NCBI GenBank assembly: GCA_030142905.1 | Contig: JASJOG010000196.1 | Coordinates: 372,001 to 436,000 of the forward strand | DNA: 64,000 nt | Origin: Heliopora coerulea | Lineage: Eukaryota; Cnidaria; Anthozoa; Scleralcyonacea; Helioporidae | Reading direction: 5' to 3' | Shown here: positions 111-62,700 of the stretch, piece after piece | Numbering within the stretch: the first letter of the stretch is position 1 | How the letters are laid out: every line of letters starts with the position of its first letter | Program-made: the position numbers and the translations under genes | Notes under the pieces: generated by a model | The model's database searches: none | Seen by the model: only the letters and a program-made list of their open reading frames with translations | Told to the model about the DNA's origin: nothing

Positions 111-3100
111 TGATTAGGGTTATGAATGTCAGGTATTAATGTAATGTATGTATGAGGTGCCATTTATGGCAGGCGATATGTGAACGTTTCTCAAGCTAAA
201 TTCGTGGGAAAATATTTCTAAGCCCCAAACAATATGCCATATTCTCGAACTATGACAATGGTTAAAGTTTCTCGCTGTTCTTCAGTAAGTTACGGGTTCA
301 ATATACGCGTTTGGGGCTCGTAAATATTTTTCTGAGGATCTGAGCTATTCGAACGTTCGTGAATGGTGGGTTTGTTGTAATCTCAAGTAAGATGTGGGCC
401 AAAATGTCTGGTAGTCCGATCAAAGTACAAATATCAGTGCCCACACAACACACGAACTAGAGTCAGCAAACATTAACCCAAAGGAACATAATATTTAGCG
501 TTTCGATGCTTACACTCGAAACGTCCTCAGAGATATTCTTTGCTGTATTCGTAAAATCTAAATATACATGCTGGCAAAGAGAACCGTATTTATACTTTAA
601 GATGTTTTGTATATTCGCTATCAGAAATCGAGTTTACATACAGAGCACCTCCGAATCACGCAAGACGTTTTAGGGGTTAATGTAGGATGCGAACCTGGAA
701 TTACAGATCGTGCTTCTTCACTAGGTTGTTTTGGGGTTTTTTTTTATATTTTCGGCAGGCACGAACTCCCAAGTCTGCTGGGCGAAAACGTTACTGTCTT
801 TTGCCGTGTTGATGCATTCCTCGTATTTCGAAAGAGTCATTTGCCTTTGATAATCAGATTTTATGCTTTTAAAATCCCGAAAGAAGCTCTGGATTGTTTG
901 TGGAAACGTTTCCTGAACAACTTGAGGCGTGTCGTGTTCCACGCACTTCAATTATAACGCAATATATCACGATGTATAGTTTCAGATATTTTAGACTCTT
1001 CCTCCAAGTAACAGGAACAGAAAATACGAAATTCAACTCGAAAAACCGATGTGACTTGAGCGGGTTTCCAACTCTACGTAGACCTGAAGGGGCACTCTAG
1101 ACGAGGGCCCCACGCACTATGTTACCCCTTCCGCCAGTCGTAATCTGGCGTTAGAAACATAAAAAGAAAGTGTTATGGTTGTTTAACACTAGAGAGTTTG
1201 AAGGAAAAATTTGTTGACTGCTGTACTGTGCTATCAATAGAGCAAGGAAGTCAATTTGGGAGAGGATTAAACTCCTACGTTGCTACGAGTGGACCTTTTT
1301 GTGTACGATTTTCTTTCTTTGTTCTCTCCTGTTTTTTCCTTCGCTCTTTTATTTGTTCTGTTGCTGTAGTTTGTTGTTGCGCGACAACCGTCGCCAGGAA
1401 AAGGTTATCTCGAAGTTGTGAGTTCAAGCACCACATGGACCAACAAGTGCTTTGCTTGACTTCCCGCGATAGAACATAAGCACAGGATTTTCACCTGTCG
1501 AATATCCTCGAGTAATTTCACCAAATAATCAGTGGAATTCTTCAAAAGGCTAAAACTCGCTTTTCTATAATGTTCACTAGGTTTCCCTAGCCTTGCATTA
1601 TCAGCGTTTATGTTCGGTATGTAAAAATAACATTGCATGCCGACGTGCATTCATCTTCAACCTCGTTATTGAGGAATTGTTATGATTAATATCTTCAGAC
1701 TCAATACACTTTTTCTAAATCCTTCAAACTTAACTCTAACATTAAAACGTTTAGATTTTCAAGGTCAAACATAAAAAAAGCCACTGACCGTATGTAACTT
1801 TAAAATTTGGTCTTACCAATCCTCTCATTCCCTGTGGTCCATTTGCCGAACTTTGCGTTAACTCTCAGGAAGTTTACACCGGTCCAAAACGTGAAAAAGC
1901 CGGCACAGTGGCCCACTGGCCGGCTTTTAGCTGCATCATTAGTTACTGGCGAACTTCCGCGAAGCCAATACAAAGAAGATTCACTGTTTAATTATAACTT
2001 AGGATTTTCATTTTCTTAACGTCGGCTAGAGTCGTATAGAATATTTGGTCTACGGGATCGTAATTTTTGACACCTAGTACAACATATGAATAAGTGTGCT
2101 GTGACAGAAATCCCAGAAGCAATATTTGATTAAGAACCTTAAGATTTGATCTTTATCTTGCAGTATTTTCTTCATCGCGATTACGTTGACAAATCTTCAG
2201 AGGCAGATGTGCTTATGTTTAATCAAAGATTGCATTATATTGATGTTTTGATGGTTAGTTGTTCAGTGTTTTTACATGGAAATCTTGGGTATCTGATCTC
2301 GCTATCATGTTTCGTGCACAACAGTCTACATTAATATACAAAACTTAAAGATCATCTTTATGTACTCTAAATTCATTGGAAATCGTATTTATATACGATA
2401 TTCCCACTTCATGATCTCCGCTTGAGAATTTACACATAATAAACATGAGATCTAAAACTGATTCCCAGATTGAATCTTAGTCCTAAAGCTCATCTTTGCT
2501 TCATACCTAACCCCAATGGGGGACATGTAATACATTAAGCTATTTATTCCAACAGTTCCGCTAGTCTTCATTTATAAGTCTATTAGACTTCCGTATTTTG
2601 ATTAAACTACCTTAGCATGCGAGAAATCAGAACCACACATATCAGACTGATAGACGGCGGACACTACAAAATAAAGTTGGTTGAATCAGTAATTGAGAAT
2701 AAAAAAAAAACCGAAAAACGCCATCTTGTTAGCTTGATATTCAAATTAGAAACAAGACTAGAAAGTTCCAAAGATGTGGCGATATTTCGACTCTGTTTCA
2801 AAGTCATCGTCAAACCAAATGACGGAGTAATTAATGATTTAAATAAATTTGATAATAAAAATATGAGAGCTCTTATGAAATCAGAACATCAAAAAATCTT
2901 AAAAAAATTAAACCAGCTATCACTAGCGAGAAGATTCAACCATTAAAAACCTTTATTAAACAGTTTTTATACATGTGTTCAACAAACAATAGCGCAATAG
3001 ATCTGTTCAAATTTCAAATAATCCTCATCATCATCTCCGCAGAAATGACCACAACTTTGTGCAAAGTAAATCCAACAGTGAATTTTTTAAGAATTATCAC

Positions 3101-7395: not shown

Positions 7396-7435
7396 TGCCA
7401 AGACAGGAGTCTTGAAAGAAGAGTCATCCTGAAAA

Positions 7436-7878
7436 CTCGAGATTCGAGTTATAAATCAAGAGACAATTTTCAACAGTTATATTTTGAGTTTATTTCAAAA
7501 TCATCATCAGTCTGAATGTTTACAATTATTTTGCAATGATTTTGAAATAAATTCGAAATATCACTGTTAATTAAAATTGCGTCACTTGATTTATAACTCG
7601 AATTTTGAGTTTTCAAGATGGCTTTCCATTCTTCATTCCTGTTTTGACATGAACTGTACATGTGTTTTATTTCAAAGTCATGGCAAATTTATTGTAAACT
7701 CTCAGACTGATGATGATGTTGAAATAAACTCGAAATATCATTATTTAAAATTGTTTCCCTTAGTTTATTACTCGAATCTTGACTTTTCAAGATGACTATC
7801 CTTTTCGAAATTTTTGTTCTATACTTTCTAAAGTTGTCGGCTGGTCATGGTTTTCAGAATCTTGACAAAGCAATATTT
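7436..7878 (+). repeat. Foldback element, leader family copy C
   Basis: Segments at 7436-7520 (inverted), 7540-7630 and 7690-7800 are related copies of one unit. The plus-strand unit has CTGATGA at 7707-7713 and GAAA at 7732-7735, a hammerhead-like arrangement with a poor middle helix. The inverted copy has CTGATGA at 7504-7510. Each plus unit ends TTTTCAAG-ATG. The ATG at 7792 opens a 29-codon frame beginning MTILFEIFVLYFLKLSAG, which looks like a secretory leader with an S-A-G cleavage context. The ATG at 7618 is followed by a short broken frame. Confidence 0.5.
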
Positions 7879-25177: not shown

Positions 25178-25209
<32 letters not shown>

Positions 25210-28200
25210 TTGTTACTGCTGCAGCTATAATATCTCATTTACGAACCTGACTTCTCTGCACAAAAATATCTCTGCCACATCTCATGAAATCTGCTGCATC
25301 AAAACAAATGTCGTGTTCTGTGGTGACAAATTTCCCTTGTTTTGCTAACACGTGACGATCTTCCACCGACTTTATTGGGTAGTCCTGTGGCAAATGAGTG
25401 AAGAATTAGCTACTTAAGAAATGAAGGCAAAGGTGCCTGGCAGTGTTAATACAAACAGATCTACATAATGTTCCACATAAATTTATCATTATTACGTCAC
25501 TTCTTACATTTTCTACCATAACCCTTTAATCCCATCTAGGAAACAGTTTACTAGCTAAAAACTTATTCAAATAAATAGTTTTCAAATCATAACCTCAAAC
25601 ACCCTACCTTTCACCTCGCTTGTACCACTAACCTAATCATAAAGTAAAGGTAAAAGGTAAAGTGCTTTTATTTATACTAGATAACCCTATCAGCTATCTG
25701 AGCTGGTCTCCCTAGAGGTCCAGTAAGGGCCTACCCTCATGGGTCCAGTGTTATGACAGGAGGAAACCGGAGAACCCGGAGAAAACCTGCGATGCTTGGT
25801 AGAGTCAAACTGGGCAACACTCTTCTCACATGTGACTGAGGCAACTTTTAATCAGATTACTGCACGCGGCCGGAATCGAACCCTAGTCACAGTGGTGAGA
25901 GACACGTGCACTACCACTGTGCCACCAGCACCCCTATAAGCACCCTCAGCTAAATCTCGTATCCATTCACTTCCTTTCATAACCTCAAGTATCCTACCGT
26001 TCACCCCTCTTGTTCCTCTCACCTCATCATAAAGTTCATCAGACATCAGACTCCTTGGGGCAGCTGTCCATGTTGCTCCGGCATGAAAATATTCCTTGAT
26101 GAGATCTCTGTAAGCTCGATATTCAAAGAACCTCGATCTCCAGCACATTGGGGCCTCCAAAATCTCTTCACCAACCACTAGTAAGACGTCACGTGGCATG
26201 GCAGCATAGAGCCCGGATGACGAGAAATCAGGAGTAGAGTACGTCTGTAGAGGTAAAGTTTAATGGTCGTTTAGTAAGTGTCATTTTGGGACAATCTTTG
26301 AGATGTGTACGGAATTAACTAAGATTAGTGAGTTTTTGAATTGGAAATGATTCTTCCAAGGTTGCCTGAGAATGTTAGCAGCTACAAAAGCGAGCCAGCT
26401 AACTCGAGAAATCAGAAAACATTGAAAGAATCTTGGAAAGAACTGAAATTAGATATACCAGCGTGGACACATTCTGCAGCCATCATCCTGCCACTGTGGT
26501 TCGCTGTATACTTGTAAAACAGCTGACATCAGACTTAACACAGAACTTGCGTTTTTACCAGTGTAGTTCGGAGGAAACATAGCTTGGAGACAATTTAACA
26601 TTTTACTGACGGTGGCGACCTTTTAGTATTTTACTCTGACTAACGCCAAGGTATTGTACTCGTCAATAGGAGACTTACCGTCAGGAAAAAGTTAAAAACT
26701 ATCTCATTAACCTTTTCTTGACGGTAGCATCCCCTTAGTATTTTACTCTGGCTAATGTCAGACGATTTTACTTGTCAATGGGTGACGTACCAATCAGAAA
26801 AGAGTTAGACGAACAGGAATTCAGACGAGTTGGTATTTTGTAGCAAGCCATATTCTCTTATTCCCATCTGTCTTACCTTGGAGTGATCAATAATGGAGGG
26901 TCGTCGTACAACAACTCCCTCGTGCTCCAGAACCCTGCAAAACTCCTCAATCTCGTTTACTGCTTTGGCCACGCACTCAGAGGGAAAGGGTTTTCCTCCA
27001 TTTTTCTTGAAAAACGGCCAGTTTCTTTGATGGGATGTCGCCTTCACTTCCACAGTAAAAGGCGGAACAGTGGCGTTTTCGGCACGGCCTACAATCACTT
27101 CTTCGAGAGGGTCCCATTCGTTGTACGAACATACCGGACTGAGGAAACATGAAACACAGCAAAATAATAGAAATAACTAATGGTTTTCTCAGTTTGGATG
27201 CGTTAGATTTAAACTCGCCGAATGTTGCGAGACTGGAAAAAAGACGTCTGAACAGAATGAAAACGACTTTTGACGTGTTTTCGACGACGCCCTTTCGATT
27301 TGAATTACTCGTTTTCTTGGTATGTTTTTGCAAGAAAAATTCTATGGAAAGAAAAAACCGTTCGTGAATCAAGAACGCTTATTGCTTAAACTCTCTACTT
27401 AACAAACTTCACCAACCTCTTCTTGGCTTCCACGTTAGACTGTTCGCACTGTACATGGGATGAACGTCGAAAAAAGTATGCCGTGGAAATAGGGGGAAGT
27501 TTCTTGAAGTGTCAAAAGAAGAAAACCATTAAAAAATAAAACCGTTCAGAGATAACAACAGCAGTGTCGCCCGCTATAGGGCTTTGTGGAAGGTTTGCCC
27601 AGTCGACGAAATATATTTCGCTCCTTTTACCGCAGTATGTTGAAGGATCATTTCTGAACAAGTAGTTTACTTGGAAAACGCATTGCAGAAAAAAAAGGTG
27701 GACCTTCTAACTCGATATTCTGTACAAACACGACATGTTTTCTAGTTAAAGTCGCCCTCTAAACATCCCTTTGCCGTTCGATTGTCCCGCCAAATCCGGA
27801 GGTGTGGTGAACTCAGTGTAGTGGAGAGGCGGGGGGATGAGATCGCTCCAGTCCACCATATCCAGTTGGTGTAAAAACCAGAAATAAGATTTGTGGTGGG
27901 GAAGTAAACCTAAATATTTTTAACTATGTCCACCCTAATTTTCAGCAAATGCTTTCATTACTTATTTTTGATCCAGATATTTTGGCTTTCCCTATACCTC
28001 GAAAGGGAACAGTGTTTTTTTTTGCGCGATCTTGTTGGTGGTTCTATCTCAGAGTATTCTGCACTATCCACCTCCGCGCAAAACAAGATGGCGTTCTGTT
28101 TTAAGTTATGGTAGAAGTGTTCTTTTTGTTAATTAACGAAGTCACCGAGTCAGACATTACCAAAAGAGCAACGAAATTTGGCAGTAGAGTATTCAGAGAT

Positions 28201-29266: not shown

Positions 29267-30360
29267 TTTTTCCGTTTGACTTCGTTTCGAAAAAAAGAGC
29301 TAAACCGTTCAGTAACTTACTGACGACGACAGAGATTGCAGTTACTTACATTTCATCGCCCAAAAGTACATCCGATGACGTCAGATCTGTTGCGATTCCA
29401 AACGATTCATTCCTTATTTTGTTCCAGTATTCGTAAGAAAAAGAATAGCAAGAAAGTGACAATCTTGAGCTATCAAACTTACTTGATTTATTTAGAATTA
29501 TTTTCGTACAGTTACCTTCCTGCCTAAGTAAAAAAGCTTGATATTTTGAAGGCACAGAGCAAACTGAATAATCTGAATCAAAGTCTATCAGAGGGATAGG
29601 ACCGAAAATTTAGAAGTTCGATGAGGATTCTTAAGGGGTTTTTAGTGTTTTGTAGTCTTTTATGCTCGAGACACGAATGCGCACCTATTCATCGAGGAAC
29701 CAACATTTTTCACCGTTTTCTTAATATCATAGTTCAAACATACAAGTAATAACACCTTTTATGAACGTTTCGGGACGCTGCAACTTATTCAGAATATTCT
29801 TGAAAACTTTAAATTGTTCCTGTTTCATGTTTAAAGTAATCTGTGTTCAATAGACCTTTTTCATAACGGCAGCTTGTTTAAATTTTCTTTTGTATGCATC
29901 CTAAATAGTCTTACTAGCCTCGTTTGGGAGCAAGGATTATTTTGAAGTACGAACACCAGAATAAGGCCATTAAGGCTAATTTACATGCACATAAGAGAAT
30001 ATTTTGAACAGCTGCCAATACGACACTTTCATAATGTCAATAGTTTCTCAGATTTTTACATCAGAAAACGACACAACGATAAAAAAAGGTAAAGAAAAAA
30101 TCCTATCATTATCTATCGATCATTAGAAAGTTGTAACTTTCGTCTCAATCTCTCGGTCTTTCAGTCTCTCACCCTGTTCATAGATGCGAAGTAAGACATA
30201 ACAAGAATCCAGAAGCAGCCAACTACTTTAAGTGTAAAACACAGCAAAATCCGAAGAAAAGCGACGTCTTGAAAAACCTACGAATCTACGTTAAAAACAA
30301 CACTAAATGTTGAAGTGGTGAAGTTTCGACTTTATTACAAATAACGTTCACCATTCCAAC
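29267..30360. other. GATM upstream region; no gene seen
   Basis: The GATM promoter and 5' UTR should lie just above 29,266. No TATA box or further exon is evident, and short frames here have no support. Confidence 0.4.
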
Positions 30361-30425
30361 ATTTGACTGAGTCTGAAGATGACTCTGTAATAGAGTTGAA
30401 AATTCACCGTTTTAACATTGAACTT
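30300..30425 (+). ncRNA. Hammerhead-ribozyme-like core
   Basis: CTGAAGA at 30,373-30,379, one base, then a hairpin GACTCT-GTAA-TAGAGTT (five Watson-Crick pairs plus a G-U), then GAAA at 30,398-30,401. This is the order of conserved blocks in hammerhead ribozymes, with the one-base offset after CTGANGA that I recall from Penelope-type copies. An inverse partner with GGTGAAGTTTCGACTTTATT lies at 30,315-30,340. Helices I and III and a cleavage site were not established, so activity is unproven. Confidence 0.35.
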
Positions 30426-30439
30426 AAAAATTATTAATA

Positions 30440-30700
30440 AAATACAAAGGAAAATCATAACCGTCTCTTGTCACGTGATAAAAACACGCTTACCTTTTTC
30501 CTCACGTTTCTGCGGCTTAGAAAAGATCAATTTTCAAACTTTCTAAGCAAATCAACGTATTCAGAGGTGTATTTTTTAAGTCATTTAAAAAACTCGCTGA
30601 ACATGCTTTATCGAACCTAAAACACCCGGCTGTCGCCTTATGTTTTGTATTCAATAAAGCGCTCCTGCTCGTTGTTTAAATATTACACAAAACCTATATC
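30440..30700. repeat. Dispersed repeat, copy 1 of 3
   Basis: Shares a long series of blocks (GGAAAATCATAA, TGTGATAAAAACAC, ATCAATTTTCAAACTTT, CACC.GGCT, GCTCCTGCTCGTT) with 50,585-50,815 and 58,705-58,985. It has no coding capacity. It lies directly downstream of the hammerhead-like core. Confidence 0.6.
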
Positions 30701-30979
30701 TTAGGTTTTTCAAGATGTCCCTTTTCCTTTGGATTTTGCTGTTTTATCCTTTTTAAAGGTTAGACGAGACGGGATACATTCATAACGTTCAAATAACAGG
30801 TCAGCAAGAAGGGCAAGGACGCAAAATTTTTTTCCTGCGTTTTCACTTTATTTAAGCACACAAAGAGCAATATGTGAAGATTTATATATTTCAATGCTAA
30901 AAGAGCCGTTTGCTGTGGAAGCACGTATTCATAAAACGCAGCTGAACATAAAACGCAGCAAAATAATGTTCGCCTACGA

Positions 30980-38155: not shown

Positions 38156-41100
38156 TATATATTCTGGCAAAGTACACTTCGTGTTCTCGGTTATATCTCT
38201 TGGAGGTCCTAAAATCCTACATTCCTTTCCTGCTCCTCACTTTTCTTTTCACATCCATGTAACGCACTCAAACGGTGCCCAGTATGTTCTCTAATTAAAC
38301 TTTCCAGCACACATTCGTGAAACAATCTAGCTTCACAAGTTACTCTTAAACTGTGGGATGCTTTTCTTTTCAGGCCAGCCGTATCTAGAATATCAGGTAA
38401 ACTCTTAAGAACTAGAGCAAGAAACAAACTCCGAAAAACAACATCTTGAATACTCATGATTTAAGTAAAAACAAGACGAACGTAAACGGTAAAATTTGTC
38501 TTGTTTTTACTTAAATCTTAAGTCTTCAAGATGATATTTTTCGGAGTTTGTTTCTTGCTCTGTTTCCTTAAATTGTCGGCTGGTAATGGCTTCTTATTAA
38601 GAATATTAATGCCTACTACCGGACACCTGTCATAACCGAATACCTCCTGATCACTTTTTGGCTTAAAACAAAAGGCATTTATTTCCTTATTCAAGTGTTT
38701 GATGTTTAAGATCTATATCGCGTAATAATTTATAAGTCAGGGAAAATGCCGTCTTCATTCACATTACAGCAAACATGCTTAACGACACGTGGTGTGTATT
38801 TTAAATCTTTCAGATCCCCATGATAAGTTTTAGACACACCCTCGTCAAATACAACGCAATTTGGCTGAACTTTGAAATTAATGTACCTTAAATTCCTGTG
38901 CTCCTTACTTCGGAGACCAAACTACTTGCCATAGTAAAAGTAAATGGTGTTTAAGAGTGACTTAGATGTTTGACATCCCAAAAGCTTTCTTTGCCAAAGT
39001 ATCTTGTCTTCCTCAATGCCTTCTTTCTTCGCTTTCTTCGTCTTGTTTGCCACACCTTCTTCTAAAGACTGCCTCATTTCTGAATCTAAGGCCCAGCTCA
39101 AACGTCGAACTTTTCATGTGCCGAACCAAATGCAAATCAGTTTGGACAATTATTAACATCAGATTCACCACGTGAAAAGTTCGACGTTTGAGCTGGATCT
39201 GATGCACGCCGAACTGCACTCAATTTAAAACAGCGTTTTATGGTTTGCTATACCTTCAACTATCTTCATCAAATTTCATGACATAGACTAGCACATATAT
39301 TACCTTATCTCATCCTTGTTCACAAGGTTTAATCGCATCACTGCCATTGCTTTCTTCTAAATGCCGTTGAAGTCCACAACATATACTGTACAAACCTCTC
39401 ACAAGACACCACTCTACGTCTCTTTTGCAGACCCCATCAACAAACTTGGTCAACCAAGAGTTCAGCGAGTACGCTAACATCTTAGTAATGTCACTTTTCT
39501 AAGCCTTGTCCAGATCTACTTGAAATCCTTCGTCTTCCTTGTTAGCAATCTTATTTTCCCTGACATGCTGCCACTCAAGATAAATCTTACGTGTCCACTT
39601 CGTTATGTACGGGGTTGACCGTGGCACAGATATCTCAAACAAATCTTTCTCCTCCTCTGCTCCTTTCGGTTTTCGAAATGCTCGCTTCGGAGCCATATCA
39701 CACGCGTTACATAATAAACTTAAAGAAGTAGAATGAAAATGAAAGCCGAAGCGCTAGCACTATTTGAAATTCAAATTCTGATTTTTTGGTCGAAACTACA
39801 TATAATAGCGTAATTCCCAGGAGAACTAATTTTCTTATTAACATGCAGATTTGTCACTAGACGTTTTTGAAGCCGTTCCAAGATCGCACCACGTGTTTCA
39901 TCAGTTGTAAAACCACCAGGGGCTACGCCCTCGTGGTTTTAAACCTGATAAAACACTGTTGCTCGTTTTTAAACATTACTTAAAAAACCTTTTAAATCCT
40001 ACAGTGACTATATGTCTTCTTTCTCGTTAGAAACTTACCATTTATTATCTCTGCTGACTTTTTCTCTGGTAGTGAACAGTCGAATGCATTCCTTTCACAA
40101 AGAAATTTAAAAAACTTAATAATTTACGAAGAAGGAACAAAAGATTTCTGCTCACAATTAGTATGCTGTAAATCGCATACAGAATACTAATTAGAATTAT
40201 GTAGTTTTCACTTGGATTTTCCATGTTAAAATTTATTTAACCTTCAAAATAGGCGGCAAACATGGCCATACAGTTCGGCCACTCATATTGTACCTGTTAC
40301 TTATACGTTAGTCAAAGTGAACGACGAGAAACATAAATATGTCTACTGCAAACAATCTAGTGTCTCACTGTTCATCAGAAGGTTACATGTTGTACACATA
40401 TGTAACCTTCACTCACCATTTCAGTCTATGTAGTTTAATGGTTAGAGTGTCTCACTGGTCAAAAGAAAGTGAGACTGCACACATAGATAACCTACGTACA
40501 ACCTTAAAGTCATTATTGTTCAATGGTGCTGAAGTCTCGATGGTGATTAGGATGTTGATAAACATGTAGCCTTTGCTAATAATCTTGGTTGTAGTAAAAC
40601 CTTGTTAGTGAGGGCATCTCACTGGTCACAAGAAGATTACAGTATGCAGACGTAAGTAAACTTCAGTCATCTTGATCCTTGTAACTCCCTAGTTAGACCA
40701 ACTGATTGACATAATAAGAGAACCTTTAAAGTTTAAACCATACCAAAGAAGCCCATCAGTGTAAACTGATGGATTAATCCAGACTAAGCTCGCACATTAT
40801 GGTATTTCTTACCTCAATTTGACAGCTGCCATTGGTGGGGATCGGCAAAGTCAAGGACATGAAAGCATCAAATGTTACACTTTGTTTGTTACAAACGGAG
40901 CAGGTTAACGTTGACTTAAATTGACCCTGGATAAGAAATGGAATATGATATTTATAGATTAGAAATATCGGTGTTAGTAGAGGGGGAAGGGATGGAATAA
41001 AGCAGAGAGAAGAAGAATTAAAGAGGAAGGAAGGAAGGAAGGAAGGAAGGAAGGAGGGAGGAAGGGAGGGAGGGGGGAAAGGAAGGAAAGAAAAGGGAAG

Positions 41101-44100
41101 GAAAAGAAAGGGAAGGAAAGGAAAGGAAAGGAAGGAAGGAAGGAAGGAAAGAGGGAGGGGGAAAGGAAGGGAAGAAAAGGGAATTAAAGGAAAGGAAAGG
41201 AAAGGAAGGAAGGAGGGAGGGAGGGGGGGAAAGGAAGGAAGGAAGGGAGGGAAGGAAGGAAGGAAGGAAAAAACCAAGGGAGGAAGGGAAGGAAAGGAAT
41301 GAAGGAAGGAAGTCTCTAAGAAATTTACGTCATTTATGTAAACTTTGAGAGTTGAGACATTTTGCAAGCTAAAAACCTCTTAGACAGGATCGTGACCAAC
41401 TGAATATAGACTTCTTAACCTCTTACCTGAAGTAATTCAACAATTATTGACGCGTTTCGCCTTTTGTGGTTTTCCCAAGCCAGCCGTGCGGCGACGGTAT
41501 CAGGGAGACCTTCGTTGCTCTTCTCTTCTATGTAAGCTTTCTTGATCAGCTGTCAAAAATAATGAACACGGCTTGAAAACAAGAATTTTCATCGTACGGA
41601 TTACGGGATTTCACGCAAGAACTTAAAATTTAGCAGTCACTGATGGAGTTATTAAAAAACTCTAGTTTCCTTCCGCACTAACATTGGACCCACACAGCAG
41701 TTGAGGACTTGTGGGAAGACAAGTGTTGTTGTATCTGAAAGGGATGTACAAGTGTCACGGTTTCCTTCGAGAACACATGACCAGGAAGAAATGGTCCTTG
41801 GTAAACCTCTGTAAAGACAAGTTTCGTAGTAACTATCAGAGTTAGCCAGTTGTTCGCTTTCAACTTATAAGAATAGAATACTGCGTAGACAGTGATAAAT
41901 AAGGTAAAAAGTTAAAAGGTTTATAACTGACGTAACTGATCTCAAAGAATTCCAACGTTTCGAGCAAAGTGAAACCTGCTAGAACACGTTTCTTTCTCTG
42001 ACGAAGGGACTTTGCCAGAAACGTTGGAATTCTTTGAGATCAGTCACGACAGTGATCAACCTCTTAACTTTTCACCTTCTTTCAACTCACCCTGTTCGTG
42101 TCCTCATGGAACTGATCTAGCAAAAACAAGAGGAATTCCTGTGAGTCTTGCTGTTGCTGTCCACCGAAGTGAGGCGCAAACCGTCCAATTGTCCTCTTGA
42201 ACTCCACTGGCGACACGTGCTGATAACTCCCCGAATGAGCCACTCTCATCAGGACTGCAAGCTCCTCCGCTATCCGACCCCCCGTTCCCAACGGGTTTGT
42301 CTTATTGATATCCTCCACGTAATACGAGTTGAGGATATACCTTACCAGGGGAGCTGTGGCGAAGAGGCACTGTAACACGGAGTTCATATAGCACGAATTT
42401 CCGAGATTTCTCAGGCCAGTCAACGCTTTACCGCGTCCACCATGTACCGGGGCCAGGTTCGAGAGTTGACTCGCCGTCAGTGGTTTTGTTCTGCGGTTTA
42501 CGGCCGGACGGCTGTTATGCTCGCGAGGCAAATTCTCTTTGTTTTCCACGGAATCTAACTTGGCAAGGTTTGGCGAGGACAACGATCTTTTCAGGGACGA
42601 TTTTTTCGTCTCCGAGCTCTCCACGGTCGAGGGACCATCATTTCGGCCCATAATGCTTTGGTTCATGGACTGCGCTAGACTGGCGGGGAGATTCCAATGC
42701 GTTGTCTTGGTGTTGTGATCAATGAAGTAGTACCTCCCCGTCCGCCGGTCCAAATCACGTGCCCAGCCAGGGGGTAGGCCATGCGTCATTCCTGTACGAC
42801 TCTTGGTAAATCTCTGAGGAACGTTGGAAATAAACAAGTGAGAGGCCGGAGAGTGGGCCGGTTGGGTTGGTTTGTCGGGGACAGAAGTCGGCGTGTTTGA
42901 CGAGCTCGAGGAGGGTGGAACGGGAGCTGTGTTAATTGTCGATGGGGTTGATTTTGACGAAGGATTCAGCCCAACAGACTGGGGCTGATTCACAGAAACT
43001 GGGGGGTTGCTCGAAGGTTGCTTGACGACGGTCGACGAGGGTACACGTGAAGGTACGTTTGAAGGATTTTGAGGGATGGGAAGTTTGGGCTGGGGCACAG
43101 TTGGATCTTGTCGGGAAGGATGCGGTGAGTTGGTTGTGATGGTATTGGCTTGAGCTGGCTTGATTGAGGAGGATGTGTCTGATGATACTGGTGGCTTGCC
43201 GTGGTCAGCGGCTACACCCGGTTTCCCCACCGGCAGAGCTTGGTCGTTAACAATGTTGTTCTCAACCGGCGAGGACTGGGAGGCAGGACCAGGTGCGTGG
43301 ACTGTCGAATTGCCTGCTTGGTTATTTGCCATAGATTTCGGTATGTTCTCCGCGGCTTTCCCCGGTGAAGAACTTCCAACTTGCGGTCGTTCATTAGCAT
43401 TGTTGGAAGGGAAACGTCCTGCTGGTTGATCCAATGACGTTTGACCAGGAGGAATATATTGTCTTACCACGGACGGCGCTTGTCCGTTCGGTAATGGACT
43501 CTGAGGCAATCCAGAGTGTCCGGGCTGCAAAGGCGTTTGGGAAGGATCGGGGCCTTGAGCGCTTCCGTGGCCATGACTCAACACATTTAGACGTGGTCCA
43601 GACTGTGTTGAAACTGGAAGTTGACTACCAGTAGACGGTGTTGACTGGGGAGCTTGGGAAGCTGAGGGATAGAGCTGAGATTGAGGATGATTCAGGAATT
43701 GCGCGGGATTCGTTTGGCCTGGCTCCTTCGGGTTGGACATAGGTTGGCCATTTGAACCACTTGACATGGTTGAAGGTGGTTGGGATGGTTGATGTTGGGT
43801 CGAAGGTACTGTTGGGGGTTGATAAGGGGTCTGATATCCCGTGCTTAACGGGTGGGGATATGAAGTTACGTTTGGAACGGGGCCTCGGCCGTTTACATTA
43901 CTTGGAATGGCGCCGTCGTTTCTGGGAATTACAGCAGGAACAGTCGCCTGATTGGATGTTGGGTAAAACTTGGGAATTTGATTATGGTGGTTGGGAGGTA
44001 GACCATTAGTAATTCCAGGGTCTTTCTTTACGTCAGCTTCAGGACTTACTGCGCGGAGCTTACGATTGCTCTCTTCAGCATTGCCGTTCGAGTATCGTTC

Positions 44101-47100: not shown

Positions 47101-50100
47101 CAGCTGAGGTTTGGGTAGATGGTTTCTTCCCGTTCAGTAAATCATCAATGTCCTTCAATGCATTACTAAATTAAAAAAGGTGGAAGTAAAGTTTTTTAGA
47201 CAGATATGTCCTCCATTATTGAGTGTTGGTTTTTGTCACTGAATTGGAAAAATTTATGATCATTATGACCCAATGTTTTGTTTTATCAGTTAATTTTTAT
47301 ATTTTTTCAAAATGATCTGCTCACTGAATAAGTTACCATAGACAGTAAATTTCATTGAGAATGGGAGTATACTGGCAAGAAAGGTTTACAAGAATTTATG
47401 TCATTGTCAATTTCAGTATTATAAATAGTTTAGGCATGTTCTTTCATTCAGATCGTTGGCCAGTCAAGGCTATACCATGTACTGGTAATTTTCTGATTGC
47501 CAGAGAGATGCTTTAACTATCGAGCTACAAGGTCTCATAGTAAACAAGGGCTACTTGTGTACACAACTTGTAAGTTGATCATGATTAGTGAGATGATTAT
47601 TTTGTCTGCTGAATTATAAAGACCCAGGATCTAAGCCAGTGGACTTAAAAGGTCATTAAAAGGTTAGGGTTTGTCTGTTTCTCTGTGAATCATGGGATTA
47701 AAAAGTTCTTCTGATCAAAACAGCTTGAGATGGCATCACTAAATACTGCAATTATTGATGATATCATCATCCACCATAAAATTAGTATTACCAGTAGGTC
47801 CCCTACCTTGATCCATTCTGACCTTTTACATTCATGTCTGTCTCAGATTTTTCTACAAACAATAGTGAGACATACTTGAAATTATCTTGGCTACTAATGT
47901 CTTCACAACTTAATGTTTTGTTAACATATTAGTGCATATATGTAAGGATGTCATCGCTGGTAAACTCATTTGTGCTTGATATCTCACCCTCAAAACATAC
48001 ACCTCATTGTTTGTTCACATCCATGACTTAATTTTATGACTAAATTCTCATGCCTACTCATACCACTGCTTTATAGCTCTCCTTGCCAATATTTACCCTT
48101 TGCCTCTGCTACACCAAAACTTGAGTGATAAGTCTTGGCCACACTCAAGTCCAAGGCTCGAATTAATAGGAAAATCTTACATGCACAACATGTACCTAAT
48201 TTTTTTAACTACCTGCACCACCAATTATTTATGTGCACAGACATGCTCAAAAAAAATTCTCAAAACACAATTTCACTTCTTTTCAATAATGATTTGGTTT
48301 ACTTGATGTTTTCGAGTGAGACTCCTCAGAATGCAGGCTCACTTGATGATTATGGCAAAAGGATGAGTGTAAGATTGCACAGTGGATTAAGAATCGTTCA
48401 TGATTGAATTATCAGCTAAATAATATTGATATGCTATTTGCTACAAACTACTATTATGTCCCATGTCCAATCGTTACTCTGAAGCTAAGGTAATGATGCT
48501 GATTATGAAGTGCAGCCCATGCAGTCACTGTGTGAAAATTTGTACATGCACGCAGTGCATGTAAGTGACAAAAAGGTACATGCACATCTCAAATCTTATG
48601 TGCATTTGTGCACATGTGCATGTGGTATTTTGAGCCTTGAAGTCTATGTCAAACATCTATTTATACATGTAGATTTTCAACCTCACCTTTTTCCTTTGCC
48701 TTTCTCTCCTTCTCAAGAGCTTCTTTGGCTTCCAGTGCACGCTTTTCATACCTACAGGAAATACATCATTTCTTTACATGGTGTCATCTGTATTCTCATG
48801 TTCACGTAGATGGTTCATTTTTTGGTGTGCTGCATGTGGCAAAGCAAGCCACATTGAATCACCAACTAACAATCTAATTATTGTCATTTTGATGTCATTT
48901 TTGGAATAGGGTGTTTACTTTTCCTTTATACTATCAACTGTTTGCTTTAATACCAAAAACAACTGCATAACACAGAATGAATCATAAGCCAAACACATTA
49001 CCTTGTACTGCAGCATGATATTCAATTTACAACAAAACAAGGCAAAATAAAGTCCTTAATTGAAGTCAAAATATCACAGACTGCTTTTTGTCAACTTATC
49101 TTGTTCTAACCTGAATATCATGCTACTAGATAACACTTTTAATTTATGTTTCTTCACTTTCTGAAATTGTCAGCTGGCTCTGGTTTTTTTACTAAATGAA
49201 TGTAACTTCTTTCAATGTCTAATGGCCTGAAGAAAATACAACAGTGTTGAATAAAGGTGTTGAACACATTTCTTGAAGCAAAATGCACCCAAAATTTGGG
49301 TGACAGTGTGTAGCACAGGTTTTTACAATTTTATGCTTTACTGTGAAGAAAGGCATCAGTTCTTAATTTTTCTTAACTATCACCCATACTATACTTTTGT
49401 TTCAGTTATATTACTGAGATATGGATTATCACAGTTTTTCTTAACAATAGTATTACCGATACTATACTTTTGTGTTTAAGTTTAAATCTTTCCTCTTCAG
49501 ATATTTCCTGTTAGCAAATGAGATCATTTTGCCTTAACCAAAGTAAAGCTATCAAAGATCTATCCAGACAGGATCAATTAAATATTGCAGATATAAGCAC
49601 TAGGCATAAACAATGGGAGTAAGTAAAAAAGATTTTATTATTATTACATTATAACTTTACTGATCAGTACCTTTCTGTAAGACTTGCAGCCAGTTTTTCA
49701 GCTCTATCAATGGCTTTTGTGAGAGCTTTTTTACCAATCAAGTTGCTGTAGAATTTCTTTAAAAAGGCATCAAAATGGGATAAGTTGAATAACTGATTTT
49801 GTTGCAGCAACAAATTTTTCAATGTAAGTTTAATGATCATTCTTCTAAGAATTGCTATCCAACATTACCACCATGGCAAAGTTGTCTAAATATTTGCATG
49901 TTTTAGTTTCTGATTTCCTTTAACTGTTTAAGGCTTGATTTTTTTATTGTTTTGTTTATTGTTCTCTCTTTGTTTTTCCTTTGTTCCCTTGGCAACCCTT
50001 TTGTTATTGGGAGTCTCGTTTATCAGGCACTGGGCATTCTAGGGTTGACGATGTATGATTTGATTCTGGCATACATGTTAGTTAACTGATTTTAAAATTC

Positions 50101-55429: not shown

Positions 55430-56770
55430 CTGCCAACATGGCGGATCCCGGACATGCGCACTGGAAAACGAGGACACATTGCACCCCCAAGTGAGACTTC
55501 TGGTTGCGTTTCTTATTCTGTGTTACGGTATTTGAGAGACTGGAGTCTAATTCCGAGGAAAGTCCGAGGGAACGCGACAGAACAAATTAATTTCGACGAC
55601 GAAGTATCGCTCATTCACTTTACCGTTTTGATTTTACTCAGATCTCCAGTTTTCAAGATTCTATAATTCGGAGTATGTGTTGCTTTGTATTTTTGACAAG
55701 TTAAGTTCAATAATCCGGGTATTAGCCAGCCGGAAGTAGCCAGATTCAGCTTGATATCTCTCAGGGTACATCATTGTGGACGTAGGCCGGTGGCGGAGGC
55801 TCTGAAATTGTTGACAGGGGGCTTGGTATCTAGGGTAATTTTCAAGGCGAAAATTATTATAAAACACCCCCCCTTCGAACGTTAAGAGCTCACTCAGTAC
55901 ATGTGCTCAGCACACCGAACTGGGAAAACTCTCTGAGACCCCCGTCTCGTTTGGAAAGCGAACCCGGAAAACTTCTTCAAACAGGAACAAAAGAACAATC
56001 CACTTCTGAGCAACCGTACAGGTCTTGACAGGAACAACTCCCTTTTAAGATCGATATTCCTCAATAAATTATAGACATGCCAAGTCTGTTTGAGATGCGG
56101 TAGAAGAAGAAGGAAACGGAATTTTCATCAACAAATTTTTCTACAAATTTCTTTGCCAAATGGCATGAATTTTGCTTCTCAATTCATTTGTTGTGTAAGT
56201 CAAACGTTGCTTTGCACAGAACTGGTCATTAAAAATTATTTTGTGAAGCATTGATTTAAACGTGTCCTCGGCTCTCTCACGCCTTTCTTGCTTCATTAGA
56301 AGGAGCTAGGCTTATTTGGTAGTGAAATAGAGTAAGTTACCTGACCCTCTCATTGTGAAGTCGTCTGCGAAGCAAACAGCTGTGCGTCGAGCAGCGCACG
56401 GGCCGACGCTTTGACCTTCGACCTTCATGACTATACATCTGAAAACGGAAGTTGAAATTGAAAGCCAAAAACAGCGCAGTTTGCACTACATCCATTACGA
56501 AAAAAGAGAGCAATCGAACGGTTAATCACCTCTGTAGTACTTTGAGCGACTATGATAACAAATGTAACACATTGTGCGCAATATATCGATACTTATTGTT
56601 GTTGAATATGTTGTGTTGATTGATATTATTGAATGAGGATATCGTCTTACAAGATTACTGCGTGCGTCAGACTGTTCGCCCAATGTTAGTTTCAGCTTGT
56701 ATCTATTTCCGGCCACTTTGAACTTCCCTGTTGAATACAAAACACACTGGGCACTGTTGCCATCGGACAG
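55430..56770. other. Divergent intergenic region, probably promoters
   Basis: This region separates the start of the small minus-strand gene from the start of the plus-strand sushi gene. It is richer in CpG than its surroundings (for example near 56,385-56,425). ATGGCGGATCCC at 55,438 begins a frame of only 18 codons. No further coding exon was found. Confidence 0.35.
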
Positions 56771-56772
56771 AC

Positions 56773-59700
56773 ATGACTTCGTTTTGCGCAAAGATACTTC
56801 TGTGGTTCGTTTCGCTCACCGTTGCGGTCGAACTCATCCAAGGTAAGTGAAGAATAGATGCGCAAGTGCAACAAGTGAAGAGTTAGACGAATGATGAAGG
56901 AATTCATGTTATCAATATTTAGTAAAAACTGACGAAGACACGCTATAACGCCAACCTTTTTAGTTCAATTGCTTATTTTCACTGGTGTGAGTGGAGGTAA
57001 TAGTATATTGGAGAAACATAAATTGCTGTCGTTGCCCAGTTTGTTCGTCTTTTTAAAGCACTGATATTCACCCTAACACTACTTTTATCACAAGGGAAAT
57101 CTAGGATGCTCTTCCGCAGCACCAATCATGTTCTCATTTGAGAATAAAGTACTGTCTTCGCCGTAAGACCAGAGAATTGAAAGAGTCTTGTGTCTTCCAA
57201 AGTAACCTGGTCAATTACATTTCTCGCATTCCCGAGTTTCCTTTGAGTGGAGCTTCAAAATTTAAATTCTGGAAGGGGAATTGCAGGTAACAGGTCTCAA
57301 CGACTGTCGTCAAATGGCGTCTAAAGCAAGATGTTGCTCTGTGTAACTCAATAAAGTTGTCGTTTAGAATAACGTTCCTCATTCGATTCATTTTGACAAA
57401 TAAAATTATGGACGCTTTTACAGTCTTTCTACACCATCACAGTGACCGCAATTCATCCGCTTTGGAATACTTGCTTCTTTCTTCCAAATCAGTTACCCAA
57501 CTGCAGTGATATATAATGCGTGCATAAGCTAGAAGATTCATTCTTTACTTTTGGATAATTTTTGTTCTTTAGGTTTGGAAGGTTCAAAATTGGAAAGCTA
57601 GTTTATTCTCGAAAATTGGCGCAAATTTAGAATACTTACGCCCGAAGTGGAGTGACCCACAATTGAGTGCCTGTTGCTCGCTACTGTGGTTCAGGGGGGT
57701 AACTAATATCATTTCCCGCCCACATGAAAGAAGAACGAAGAGACGAAATGAAAGAAGTCTTAGTTTTACATATTCCTCAGTATATGAACGTATCTGACGT
57801 GTAGCAAGGTGGAGGAAATTACATTAAGTGTCTCTGGTTCACTGTGCCAAATTTGGCGGGGTGTTTGTCACTTAAAAGTTCTCCGACGACTAAAAACTCA
57901 TCTTTAGAGAGTATTGTTGACAGGTATTTGTAATACTGTTTGCTTTTATTTTGCGCTACTGTAGGTGCTTCCCAGTGCCCCAGGACTAATACCAAGCCAG
58001 CTCAAAACTGTGCCAAAGAATGTCTAGTGGGAACGGGATGTTCTCACCATAGAAAAAAGTGCATTTGTGATGGAGATTGTGGATATAGCTGTATTAATCC
58101 AAGTAGGTAACTTTTTCGGATGTTTAATTTAACCATAATTCATAGGGCAGTTGCATTTTTATTATGCAACTCCCTGTTGTGTGGAGTGGCGAAGCTAAGC
58201 ATAGCAACCAGTCATGCTTTGCAAATTTCACATTACCTGAGCATACCAACAAGTCATGCTATGCAAATTTAAAATTATCTATGATATATGGTATCAGGTG
58301 ATATACATCCACCAGCACAATGGTTACTACATAAAAATGAGAGATTTAGTGGTCAAGGTAGAAGGTTATGTTAAGCATGACTAGGAATTACAACAAAATG
58401 ATGTTATGAATATGTTTTGGTTGATATCTAAATGTTGTATATAATTTTATATTTCCATATCACGATCCAGTTGGTATGCATAGATAATCTTAAATTTGCA
58501 TAGCTGACCAGTTGTTATGCTTAGTTTCATCACTAGTTGTTTCACCAATCAATTAATGCTTCAGTCAATTAGTCTGTCAGTCAGTCAGTCAATCAATCAA
58601 TCAGTAAGTTCAACAAATCAATCGGTCAGTCAATCAATCAATCAATGCCCTATTGGGTTCTGTATTCCCTGTTATCTGATAGTATACCACTCATTAAGAA
58701 GAAAGCTCATTAAGAATTCATGAGGAAAATATAAAGGAAAATCATAAGCATGCCATGTCTTTATATGTGATAAAAACACACTTTTCTCCTCCAATTTTCT
58801 CAGCTTAGAAAACATTAATTTTCAAACTTTTTGCAAATTAGCATATTAAGGGATTTGTTTTTCTAAGCTGTTAAAAAACTTTGCAGTACCTGTTTTATAG
58901 GACCTGAAACACTTGGCTATCACCTTGTATTTTATATTTGATAAAGTCCTGCTTGTTTTTTAAACATTGCTTAAAATACCGTTACAAAGATTTGATCTAT
59001 AATGGGAAAACTGGAATTTAGAACACATTGACAGAACTAAAAATTCAGAAATTTTGAAGGAAGTGTTGTTTCAAGGATTTTGGCTTCTAATCTGGTTTTC
59101 GACTGGGATTCAGGTTGCTGTCTGATTCGTTGTCTGCATGAATGTGACTTTGTTTTGGGACCATGATCAGACTCTTTCATTTGCTGAAATCTTTAGGACT
59201 TGCTATTTACTGCACATAATCATTCTCAAGAAAACATGAAGAAAAAATTTTATGAATATGTTATTTATGGTCTTTTGATGACACAATTTTAATAAATGTA
59301 TTTTGAGCAAATGTTGCAATTTGATCTTGGATGCTTCACTTGTTATGAAGATTACAGAAAAGGAACTGGGTAATGTTAAAGGAATAACATAAGAGAAAGC
59401 AAATTCCAAAAACGAAGGCCATCTTTTAACTTAAGATTTAAGTTAACGAAAGATGAAAACTGTGAAATGGTGATATTTTGATTTTATTGCAAAATCATCT
59501 TCAGGCCAAGTAGAACTAACATAAGTGGACCTAAGGTTTATATATACATGGGAAAAGTGATTACATCATTGATGAACAATGTGGAAGAAGAATGATGCAA
59601 TCACTTTTCCCATGTATATATGAACCTTAGGTCCGCTTATGTTAGTTCACTGGGTCTGAAGATGATTTTGCAATAAAATTGAAATATCACCATTTGACAG

Positions 59701-62700
59701 TTTTCATCTTTCGTTAACTTAAATCTTAAGTTAAAAGATGGCCTTCGTTTTCGGAATTTGCTTTCTCTTATATTTTTTGAAGTTGTTGGCTGGTCAAGGT
59801 TTTAAAGGAATAAGACTTTCAATATTCAACTCCACCGGCTCATAAAAAGCTACATGAAAATAGTAGTACTGGACATGATAATGAATATAATGCTTGCTTA
59901 TTGAGAGCACTACATCCTCAAAAAGATTGTTATTAATAAATTAGTCATTATCAGCAACATCATCATCATAATCATTATAATATTGTTATTATTATCATAA
60001 TTATTACCATTGACAATGTGACAATTAGACATTGTCAAGAAGCATACTCATATGTTAAGTATATTACTGTATCAGGTTATTTCTACCATCACATCAATTG
60101 TCTGTATGATTCTTATCTTGTAAGCCTGTCAATAATACTTTTGTGGTGCCTCGATGTCTTATAGATCGAAAGTGCAGCAAACCAAGTGTTCGAAATGGTA
60201 AAGTAATTTACAAATCGTCCCGCTTTAATGACACTCAAAGAACAATTTGCAAGCCCGGCTTCAAGTTGACTGGCTCAGCTACAAGGAGATGTCGAGGGAA
60301 TGGATTATGGGATGGAAAAAGATCACGCTGTAGTAAGTAGGTTATTCCTAATGATGTAAAACCCAGTTTAATAATAATAATAATAATAAAAAAAATTATG
60401 ATACTGCTCAAAGTGGCTGAAAATTCTTCAATTGTATTTGATTGACACATATCAGAGCAACAAATACACATGCCTTATACACAATATCTCAAGGCAAGTG
60501 TACCCAATATTTTATTGACTTTATTTGAACAGAGAAGTTGGTATTTCTTGTTGAGAAGTTAAGTATGTTGGAAAAGTTGCCAGTGACTCAGTGATACACA
60601 GCTCTCAGAAATCTTGTGGTCACCAGCTTCTAATGAAACACCTGGGAAACAGAAGGCAAGAACATTTACCCTGGGTTACAAGCATATTGACAGAACTTCA
60701 TCTCTCTACTTCATCAAAATTGGGATGTGTGGTGTCATTGATTTGTGGAGAAAGGGAGCCAGACAATTAACTCTTCTCGGGCACTGGAAACAAGTGCTGT
60801 CACTGACACATTGACAACAAACATGCTCACAAAGAATGTGAAAGTAGACCTCCATGTAAATTGTAAACAAACCTACTGAAGGTAAAATGGGCAAATCAAG
60901 TGATTGAATAATTGTGAGAAAAAACACTTGATAATAAATTTTGGACATATTGCCCAGTGACATGAAACGATTACTTCACAATTAACCTACACTGCCAAAG
61001 TCAACTGAAAAAGTTGACTCAAGCAGGATTTGAACTTGCATCTTCACGATACCGATCCCACCGCTCTACCTGTTGAGTTCAAATCCTGGTCGAGTCAACT
61101 TTTTCAGTTGACTTTGGCAGTGTAGGTTAATTGTGAAGTATTCCTTTCATATTACCCAGTCAGGTTTCCTTTGATCAAATAAAATCTCTTCCAGTGTTGA
61201 AAACCACAGAAGTTATATACAATACATAAATTAAGTAATGTTATTCAACTAATTATGACTTTCTATGAAATGTATAAGTGTTCGAAACTGTCCTTTACAT
61301 TGTGCATCCTGTGTTACCTCTCATATCCCTGTTTTCCCATACTTTCACATATGAACCAATGTAGTAACCAAAGCTAATCACACAATAAAATGTTCATTTC
61401 CAGGAAAGCCAAAAAAGCTTTGTAAGGATCCTGGTACCCCAGGCTCAACAATGCGTTTTAGGCCTGCTAGCCCAAATGGATTTAACCCAGGCACAATACT
61501 GCAGTATTACTGCCCACCTAAGTATATACTAAAAGGATCACAATCCTTGAGATGTGAAAGTACTGGAAAGTGGACTGACAATGTACCCACCTGCCATGGT
61601 AAGTTTATCATGGGGAAAGGATTATAGTTTGTGAAGAATGGAAATCACTTTAGTATGATAGGTGTTCCATCCCATGGTTGCAATTAACAACTCTTGTAAT
61701 TCTTATCATAACACACACTCAACTGCTCATTTGCTCACTTGGCATCCACTAAATTAATTGGTACCCACAATTAATGGCAACAATAACTCATACATTCACT
61801 TACTTGCCTACTTAAAGAAATTAGTGAAGTATGATTGCTGTTCCATCCTATAGTAGCAATTAACAACTCTTGTAGTTGTTGTCATAATGCACATTCAATT
61901 ATTTACTCACTCACTTGGCACTTGCCAAATTAATTATCCACAATTGCTGGCTCAGTGGTTTACTAACTCACTCATTCACTTACTAGCCCACTCAGTCACT
62001 CAGGTAACTTTTTACTCATTCACTGACTTACTTGCTCCCTTGTAAACCCACCCACACATCTATTCCCTTGATTAATAACTCATCCACCACACCACCTACC
62101 TATAAATCCACTAACCCGTTCACACCACCTCCCATCTTATTCACCCATGAGCTTGTGAACTAAATCCTACCTTCCACCTTCTCACCCACCTACCGGCTCC
62201 AAAACCCACCAACATAACCTCTAAATTCCCCACCTAGTAGCTCATTCACCCACCATTTATTTATTTATTACTTTATTTGTTGATTAATTATTCATTTGTA
62301 CATCTTCCCACCTATAACAGGTTTTTACTCCACCTCACTCTCTTTGGTGTACTGTGCAAGAACAACATTATACATGAAAATAATGCTGAAACATTTTCAT
62401 TTTTTCCACAGAGCCAAAATGCAATGCAGCAGTTCTGCCTCCTAATTCCTACGTAATTCGTCCAAAGAATTGGAGGAACCTGAAGGATTATGGTGTTCGT
62501 TTTACCCTTGGTTGTAACCCAGGCTACACAACCACCCAGCGTGGAAATTTAGTTTGTGTAACTCCAAACTGGAAATTAGGACCTAGTTCTTTCAAGTGTT
62601 TCCGTGAGTTTGTATTTTTACTGATATCTTAATACGTAGGCGAAAGCGTGGGTAATGAGCAAGAAAAACAAACATGCTGAGAAAGTGAAAGAAATTCAAA

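What the first reader, a model, noticed from the sequence alone, without database searches (positions are those of the whole stretch)
59390..59845. Foldback elements carrying a conserved signal-peptide-like start, in four places
Copies near 7.8, 38.5, 49.1 and 59.7 kb each have an ATG opening a leader ending FLKL(S/L)AG.GF: MTILFEIFVLYFLKLSAG, MIFFGVCFLLCFLKLSAG, MFLHFLKLSAG and MAFVFGICFLLYFLKLLAG. Three of the four sit at the end of inverted or repeated arms. The -3/-1 residues S-A suit signal peptidase. Mobile non-coding repeats do not normally preserve a leader peptide, so these may be (a) the N-terminus of a protein made by an unknown autonomous element, or (b) a 5' exon that the element spreads and could donate to host genes.
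Basis: partly seen in the sequence, partly recalled or inferred. Interest (0 to 1): 0.75.

Follow-up and report, generated by a model that had tools for sequence, protein, structure and literature searches.

The report
Penelope-like retrotransposon copies, conserved protein start
The foldback repeats are broken copies of a known kind of jumping gene (a Penelope-like retrotransposon), and the shared 'leader peptide' is the first 12 or 22 amino acids of that element's own reverse-transcriptase protein, dragged along because of where copying starts; the less familiar point is that this protein start is greasy and conserved in distant relatives.

Summary
The foldback at 59.4-59.8 kb is a truncated Penelope-like element (PLE): two inverted pseudo-LTRs, one about 29 nt longer, inside an exact 12-nt duplication. 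Of 20 related copies read from the same genome, 20 have the long arm, 15 the shorter inverted partner and 14 an exact 11-16-nt duplication. Several longer ones hold reverse-transcriptase and endonuclease-like fragments. A natural 854-aa frame elsewhere in the genome starts MTLFFGICFILYFLKLSAGHGF and runs into the reverse transcriptase. So the leader is the PLE protein's N-terminus. Short arms end after codon 12, long arms after codon 22, as published for Adineta PLEs. Between nine subfamilies the leader changes mainly at silent sites (pS 0.65, pN 0.18). A hydrophobic start occurs in 29 of 29 homologues whose alignment reaches it. Option (b), an exon donated to host genes, has no support, though transcripts could not be searched. 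A new member of a known kind; the conserved signal-anchor-like start, of unknown function, is the only part that might surprise a specialist.

The parts
59376..59387 (.). left target-site duplication TTAAAGGAATAA of copy D
   Evidence: exact 12-nt match to 59802-59813; among 20 sampled family copies (D included) exact repeats of 11-16 nt in 14, against none above 9 nt in 380 mismatched pairings
59388..59570 (-). short arm: inverted pLTR ending at about codon 12 of the ORF
59571..59590 (.). 20-nt spacer between the arms
59591..59803 (+). long arm: pLTR plus ~29-nt 'tail'
   Evidence: the matching arm reaches the same base in 20 of 20 fetched loci (chosen from the top of the list)
59656..59690 (+). 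CUGANGA-stem II-GAAA (hammerhead-ribozyme-like core), not confirmed by Rfam
   Evidence: no hammerhead hit
59738..59803 (+). the leader: first 22 codons of the PLE ORF (MAFVFGICFLLYFLKLLAGQGF); codon 12 ends at 59773
59802..59813 (.). right target-site duplication TTAAAGGAATAA (overlaps the last two bases of the leader)
7415..7856 (+). copy A: cluster of divergent PLE pLTR arms, leader 7792-7854
38405..38593 (+). copy B: foldback pLTR pair, leader 38531-38593
49061..49187 (+). copy C: decayed pLTR, frame shifted, homologous ATG lost
30205..30341 (-). further decayed copy with degenerate leader TSLFFGFCCVLHLK*LAASGF
30373..30758 (+). two short decayed pLTR pieces (30373-30414, 30692-30758)
2695..2812 (-). 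decayed pLTR piece
55600..55694 (+). decayed pLTR piece
60165..60331 (+). sushi (CCP) exon of a host gene (borders inferred from AG/GT), 361 nt downstream of copy D's leader; not part of the element
   Evidence: Pfam Sushi E 1.8e-9 for 60167-60331; sequence

Best explanation
The foldbacks are truncated insertions of Penelope-like retrotransposons. The element's ORF starts inside the repeated pLTR. Reverse transcription starts inside the RNA at one of two sites, just after codon 12 or just after codon 22 of the next tandem unit, so an insert ends with a pLTR carrying the first 12 or 22 codons. Second-strand or self-priming events then leave head-to-head inverted pLTRs, with or without part of the RT-endonuclease between them. 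Shown here: anatomy, target-site duplications, the two end classes, ORF continuity of the leader, protein-level constraint on the leader. Inferred from published work on other PLEs: the two RT start sites and the self-priming. My best guess for the hydrophobic start is a membrane-binding or dimer-contact helix of the PLE protein rather than a cleaved secretion signal; that step is inference.
For: Arms, spacer and target-site duplications. RT and endonuclease-like frames between inverted arms; Pfam RVT_1 above its cut-off in L045 and found in 40 of 40 aligned homologues. Leader in one frame with the RT region in 3 of the 8 upstream stretches fetched by place (L037, L038, L044; L037 and L038 are near-identical) and in the 854-aa frame of L045, the same place as L037. 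Genome search across that start (leader at query 65-130): of 46 matches listed, 6 at 95-100% identity cover the whole query; 8 more run 80 nt or further past the leader (2 at 96-97%, 6 at 75-78%) and 2 run 37-43 nt past it; 18 start at base 1-2 and stop at 131-147, 11 of them at 131-134; 4 stop at 101-103, just after codon 12; 8 start at base 84 or later. Leader pS 0.65 against pN 0.18, codon-position differences 199/97/353. Published architecture with 12 and 22 aa: PMC3846280 (section 6). Two internal RT starts explaining the tail: PMC11167929 (passages, section 3 part 1 of 2).
Against: Pfam's GIY-YIG model is only just missed by L045 (21.8 bits, cut-off 22.6, E 2.4e-4) and is matched by only 4 of 40 homologues at E 0.01 or better. 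Rfam reports no hammerhead ribozyme, a feature reported in other PLEs. No full-length element of copy D's own subfamily with its own leader was seen among the 8 loci: the longest open one, L030 (753 aa), is cut at its 5' end. 6 of 20 sampled copies show no exact flanking repeat over 7 nt, two of them (L011, L017) with imperfect ones by eye; 5 of 20 lack a full shorter partner arm.
Confidence: 0.95

Rival explanations
1. The leader is a mobile 5' exon: promoter, signal peptide and splice donor that foldback copies place upstream of host exons (copy D would feed the sushi exon at 60165).
For: Copy D lies 361 nt upstream of a sushi exon in the same direction; a GT after GCT-G would give a phase-1 junction that fits that exon. 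In copy B the same place reads GTAATG, closer to a donor consensus.
Against: In copy D the place reads GTCAAG, a poor donor (consensus recalled), and in copy C it is GGC. Codons past it (G-x-G-F) are conserved, and in natural long frames the protein runs on uninterrupted. A search of the first 40 residues of the PLE protein against public proteins gave nothing, but that test was nearly powerless (1 candidate). No RNA data could be searched.
Confidence: 0.03
2. The leaders are first exons of tandem host gene paralogues.
For: Four similar starts in one window, one upstream of a secreted-domain exon.
Against: 98 matches at about 39 separate places (arms match on both strands, so matches exceed places), with target-site duplications and RT remnants.
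Confidence: 0.01
3. The DNA or RNA of the leader is kept for a nucleic-acid role (endonuclease recognition or RT start), and the peptide is a by-product.
For: The tail was reported as needed for endonuclease recognition in Drosophila virilis Penelope, and to lie between the two RT start sites in Anolis (PMC11167929, passage).
Against: Between subfamilies change is concentrated at third codon positions, and a hydrophobic start is kept in full-length proteins only 42-48% identical over the ORF.
Confidence: 0.08

Closest known systems
Penelope-like elements of the rotifer Adineta vaga (Pen2a_Av; PMC3846280)
   Same: Single RT-endonuclease ORF, 218-bp pLTRs, an inverted shorter pLTR (181 bp), a 31-bp tail, pLTR holding the first 12 aa of the ORF and 22 aa with the tail, short target-site duplications
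   Different: Reported there at very low copy number; here many copies, among them near-empty foldbacks. The paper's main text has no occurrence of 'signal peptide' or 'hydrophobic'
Poseidon of Anolis carolinensis, PAc (PMC11167929)
   Same: Two adjacent internal RT start sites near the ORF start would produce the two end classes seen here
   Different: PAc's hammerhead overlaps its start codon; here the hammerhead-like core lies about 80 nt upstream of the ATG and is unconfirmed
Uncharacterised PLE-type proteins, some named as Clytia hemisphaerica, most from sets without an organism name (P0002-P0101)
   Same: RT domain; hydrophobic start, in many followed by a W-x-x-LR stretch
   Different: 42-48% identical to L045 over the ORF for those above 800 aa

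Membership tests
Penelope-like elements (endonuclease-containing) | reverse transcriptase related to telomerase | tested here: met
   RVT_1 E 2.9e-8, 34.1 bits over a cut-off of 29.6; the model of homologue P0003 has telomerase as its first PDB match, E 2.3e-9, though with a TM-score of only 0.32
Penelope-like elements (endonuclease-containing) | C-terminal GIY-YIG endonuclease in the same ORF | tested here: inconclusive
   Pfam GIY-YIG at residues 729-768 of L045, E 2.4e-4, 21.8 bits against a cut-off of 22.6; 4 of 40 homologues match at E 0.01 or better, best 1.1e-4. Probable but divergent
Penelope-like elements (endonuclease-containing) | pLTRs in direct and/or inverted arrangement, with an optional 30-40 nt tail | tested here: met
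   inverted pairs, direct repeat of the pLTR start before and after the ORF of L045, two end classes; tail here about 29 nt
Penelope-like elements (endonuclease-containing) | short target-site duplications | tested here: met
   14 of 20 with 11-16 nt exact; none of 380 mismatched pairings above 9 nt
Penelope-like elements (endonuclease-containing) | ORF start lying inside the pLTR/tail (12 and 22 aa in Adineta) | tested here: met
   against PMC3846280 section 6
Penelope-like elements (endonuclease-containing) | hammerhead ribozyme motif in the pLTR | tested here: inconclusive
   CUGANGA/GAAA core; stem II paired in 120 of 132 cells of 22 distinct rows, reached by 14 of 2000 shuffles, relatedness not controlled; no Rfam hammerhead hit
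Penelope-like elements (endonuclease-containing) | clade within PLEs (Penelope/Poseidon, Neptune, Nematis and others; names recalled) | not tested
   no named reference set was used
Cleavable signal peptides | hydrophobic core near the N-terminus | tested here: met
   highest 15-residue hydropathy of L045's protein is at its start, 2.1 against 1.5 elsewhere; 29 of 29 homologues pass a 12-residue threshold of 1.5, though in 5 of 29 a stretch within about 200 residues is more hydrophobic still
Cleavable signal peptides | cleavage by signal peptidase / entry into the secretory pathway | not testable with these tools
   no predictor, no experiment

The most novel reading that the evidence does not exclude
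PLE proteins of this and related lineages carry a conserved N-terminal signal-anchor that tethers the RT-endonuclease and its RNA to a membrane (ER or nuclear envelope) during the transposition cycle, a targeting step that I did not find described for this class.
Probability: 0.15. Interest if true: 0.7.

Novelty: new member of a known kind. Interest (0 to 1): 0.35.

Why it matters
It turns a puzzling 'mobile signal peptide' into a trace of how Penelope-like elements copy themselves: an insert records where reverse transcription began, including the first codons of the protein. If the conserved greasy start really works at a membrane, it would be an unexpected step in the life cycle of a telomerase-related retrotransposon. 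PLE copies would also sow short ATG-bearing hydrophobic leaders through host genomes, which gene predictors may mistake for secreted-protein starts (inference).

Tried and rejected
Host 5'-exon idea: started from the sushi exon and phase-1 compatibility, set aside after the genome-wide copies with target-site duplications and RT remnants appeared. DNA transposon / MITE reading: dropped because the two ends differ by a near-constant ~29 nt and longer copies carry an RT. Hammerhead ribozyme: suggestive core, no Rfam hit; left open. Idea that 5'-truncated copies begin exactly after codon 22 through a circular template: L040 proved to be a head-to-head junction with microhomology, so dropped. Leader-only protein search: 1 candidate, no result, nearly powerless. 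Paper searches for a signal peptide or hydrophobic N-terminus in PLEs: 749 papers hold at least 3 of 4 terms; only 12 listings seen, none evidently on this; 0 papers hold 4 of 5 terms; for FLKLSAG found one paper, unrelated by its title. Searches were listings on related terms. That is no proof that the feature is unpublished. MIR841 and similar matches at copy B lie far below the families' gathering scores and fit its hairpin shape.

Row choices: the pS/pN test used 9 of the 12 rows printed (L016, L037, L038 dropped as near-duplicates). Copy C and L009/3308, L015/5908, L025/5792 and window 30341 were not in it, so it leans towards readable leaders, and its pairs are not independent. In one search, 24 of 35 rows keep the ATG and an open frame by my reading (L019/862 counted as open); the other 11 have a shift, a stop, a lost ATG or, in one case (L018/5590), run out of the arm, as expected for dead copies. 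The 29 of 29 count comes from 120 listed homologues; the 29 are those starting with Met whose local alignment reaches the N-terminal region at a matching offset, so N-terminally short entries such as P0012, P0017, P0025 and P0037 are not in it.
Full report
The window is 372001-436000 of contig C108 in a 430-Mb genome of 769 contigs. Frames in it resemble a GPCR, guanidinoacetate methyltransferase, glycine amidinotransferase and a USP-type hydrolase (names recalled, not searched), and sushi exons, so it is most likely an animal. I took it for a coral, but the species was not determined.

Observation. All four leader strings exist. D (59738-59803), B (38531-38593) and A (7792-7854) sit at or among inverted arms; C (49152-49187) does not, and is a decayed copy whose homologous ATG reads ATA and whose frame is shifted. 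A nucleotide profile of five arms finds further decayed stretches near 2.7, 30.2-30.8 and 55.6 kb.

Anatomy of copy D. The left arm (59388-59570, minus) and right arm (59591-59803, plus) enclose a 20-nt spacer; an exact 12-nt duplication TTAAAGGAATAA flanks them (59376-59387, 59802-59813). The two arms share the pLTR, but the right arm is about 29 nt longer. The leaders point outward.

Genome-wide. The D region has 98 scored matches at about 39 places (each arm matches on both strands); this is a lower bound, since 40 of 1220 candidates were scored. I fetched 20 of those places, 9 kb each, from the top of the list. In these the long arm reaches the same base in 20 of 20, and 15 of 20 have a nearby partner arm ending 18-35 nt earlier. 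The gap between partner arms ranges from under 20 nt to about 2.5 kb. Exact flanking repeats of 11-16 nt occur in 14 of 20 elements examined (19 of these places plus copy D), against none above 9 nt in 380 mismatched pairings.

Identity. Sequences between the arms of longer copies hold reverse-transcriptase and endonuclease-like frames. In the intact frame of L045 Pfam gives RVT_1 above its cut-off and GIY-YIG just below; 40 of 40 aligned homologues match RVT_1 but only 4 of 40 match GIY-YIG at E 0.01 or better, so the endonuclease is probable but divergent. The layout agrees with PMC3846280 (section 6 read; other passages): 218-bp pLTRs, an inverted shorter pLTR, a 31-bp tail, and a pLTR that includes the first 12 aa of the ORF, 22 aa with the tail. 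PMC11167929 (passages, section 3 part 1 of 2) explains the tail by two adjacent internal starts of reverse transcription.

The leader is the ORF start. An RT query found 147 matches (147 of 3894 candidates scored), several in long open frames. Of 8 upstream stretches fetched, three (L037, L038, L044) show the leader in frame with the RT region. The other five do not: L040 begins right after codon 22, L039 shows no leader, and L041-L043 lack this part. L045, the same place as L037, holds a natural 854-aa frame beginning MTLFFGICFILYFLKLSAGHGF. A DNA query across that start (40 of 2348 candidates scored; 46 matches listed; leader at query 65-130) separates clear classes: 6 matches cover the whole query at 95-100% identity; 8 run 80 nt or more past the leader and 2 run 37-43 nt past it; 18 start at base 1-2 and stop at 131-147 (11 at 131-134), just after codon 22; 4 stop at 101-103, just after codon 12; 8 start at base 84 or later.

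Selection. Nine subfamily leaders differ at codon positions 1/2/3 by 199/97/353 over 761 codon pairs; pS 0.65, pN 0.18. Read in shifted frames on the five ungapped rows the contrast weakens (0.36 against 0.27) or reverses (0.17 against 0.33). The rows are readable leaders and their pairs are not independent.

Relatives. Full-length homologues (over 800 aa) from public protein sets are 42-48% identical to L045 over the ORF. A hydrophobic start is present in 29 of the 29 whose alignment reaches the N-terminal region, out of 120 listed; in 24 of 29 it is more hydrophobic than the following ~160 residues examined, in 5 it is not. In the model of homologue P0003 (mean pLDDT 90.1) the start is a helix, residues 2-16, with a pLDDT of about 60, so it is not firmly placed in the monomer model. 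A membrane helix, a dimer contact or a loose end all remain possible.

Mechanism. The most economical account is that a tandem PLE RNA is reverse-transcribed from inside the start of the next unit's ORF, so the end of an insert carries 12 or 22 codons. Self-priming, proposed in PMC3846280 for head-to-head inverted structures, yields the foldback. Neither an unknown kind of element nor exon donation need be invoked.

What stays open: the function of the hydrophobic start, hammerhead activity, the PLE clade, the host species, and whether copy D affects the sushi gene downstream.

Noticed in passing
window 59656-59690, 30373-30414, 7707-7740; L045 1-104: Hammerhead-ribozyme-like core CUGANGA-stem II-GAAA with stem II pairing mostly kept between subfamilies (120 of 132 cells; 14 of 2000 shuffles reach it), but no Rfam hammerhead match.
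   Followed up: partly
window 60165-60331 and 61355-61627: Sushi (CCP) exons of a host gene just downstream of copy D; its first exon was not identified.
   Followed up: partly
window 24210-25250: Long trinucleotide-type repeat open in several frames (poly-D/V, poly-S/T, poly-H/Q, poly-N/I).
   Followed up: no
window 41926-42054: Inverted repeat of about 30 nt per arm with a long loop, matched to a miRNA family below its gathering score; perhaps another foldback element.
   Followed up: no
window 22740-23228: Tandem repeat whose unit stays open in frame (HWSSEGYSLYTYVTFTHHLSPCSSMVRVS).
   Followed up: no
L013 2351-3606: Remnant of a more divergent PLE-type reverse transcriptase (pieces 22-38% identical) beside a copy of this family.
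   Followed up: no
L040 upstream of the ORF: Head-to-head junction joining the inverted 3' UTR to the base right after codon 22 with TTTT microhomology.
   Followed up: partly
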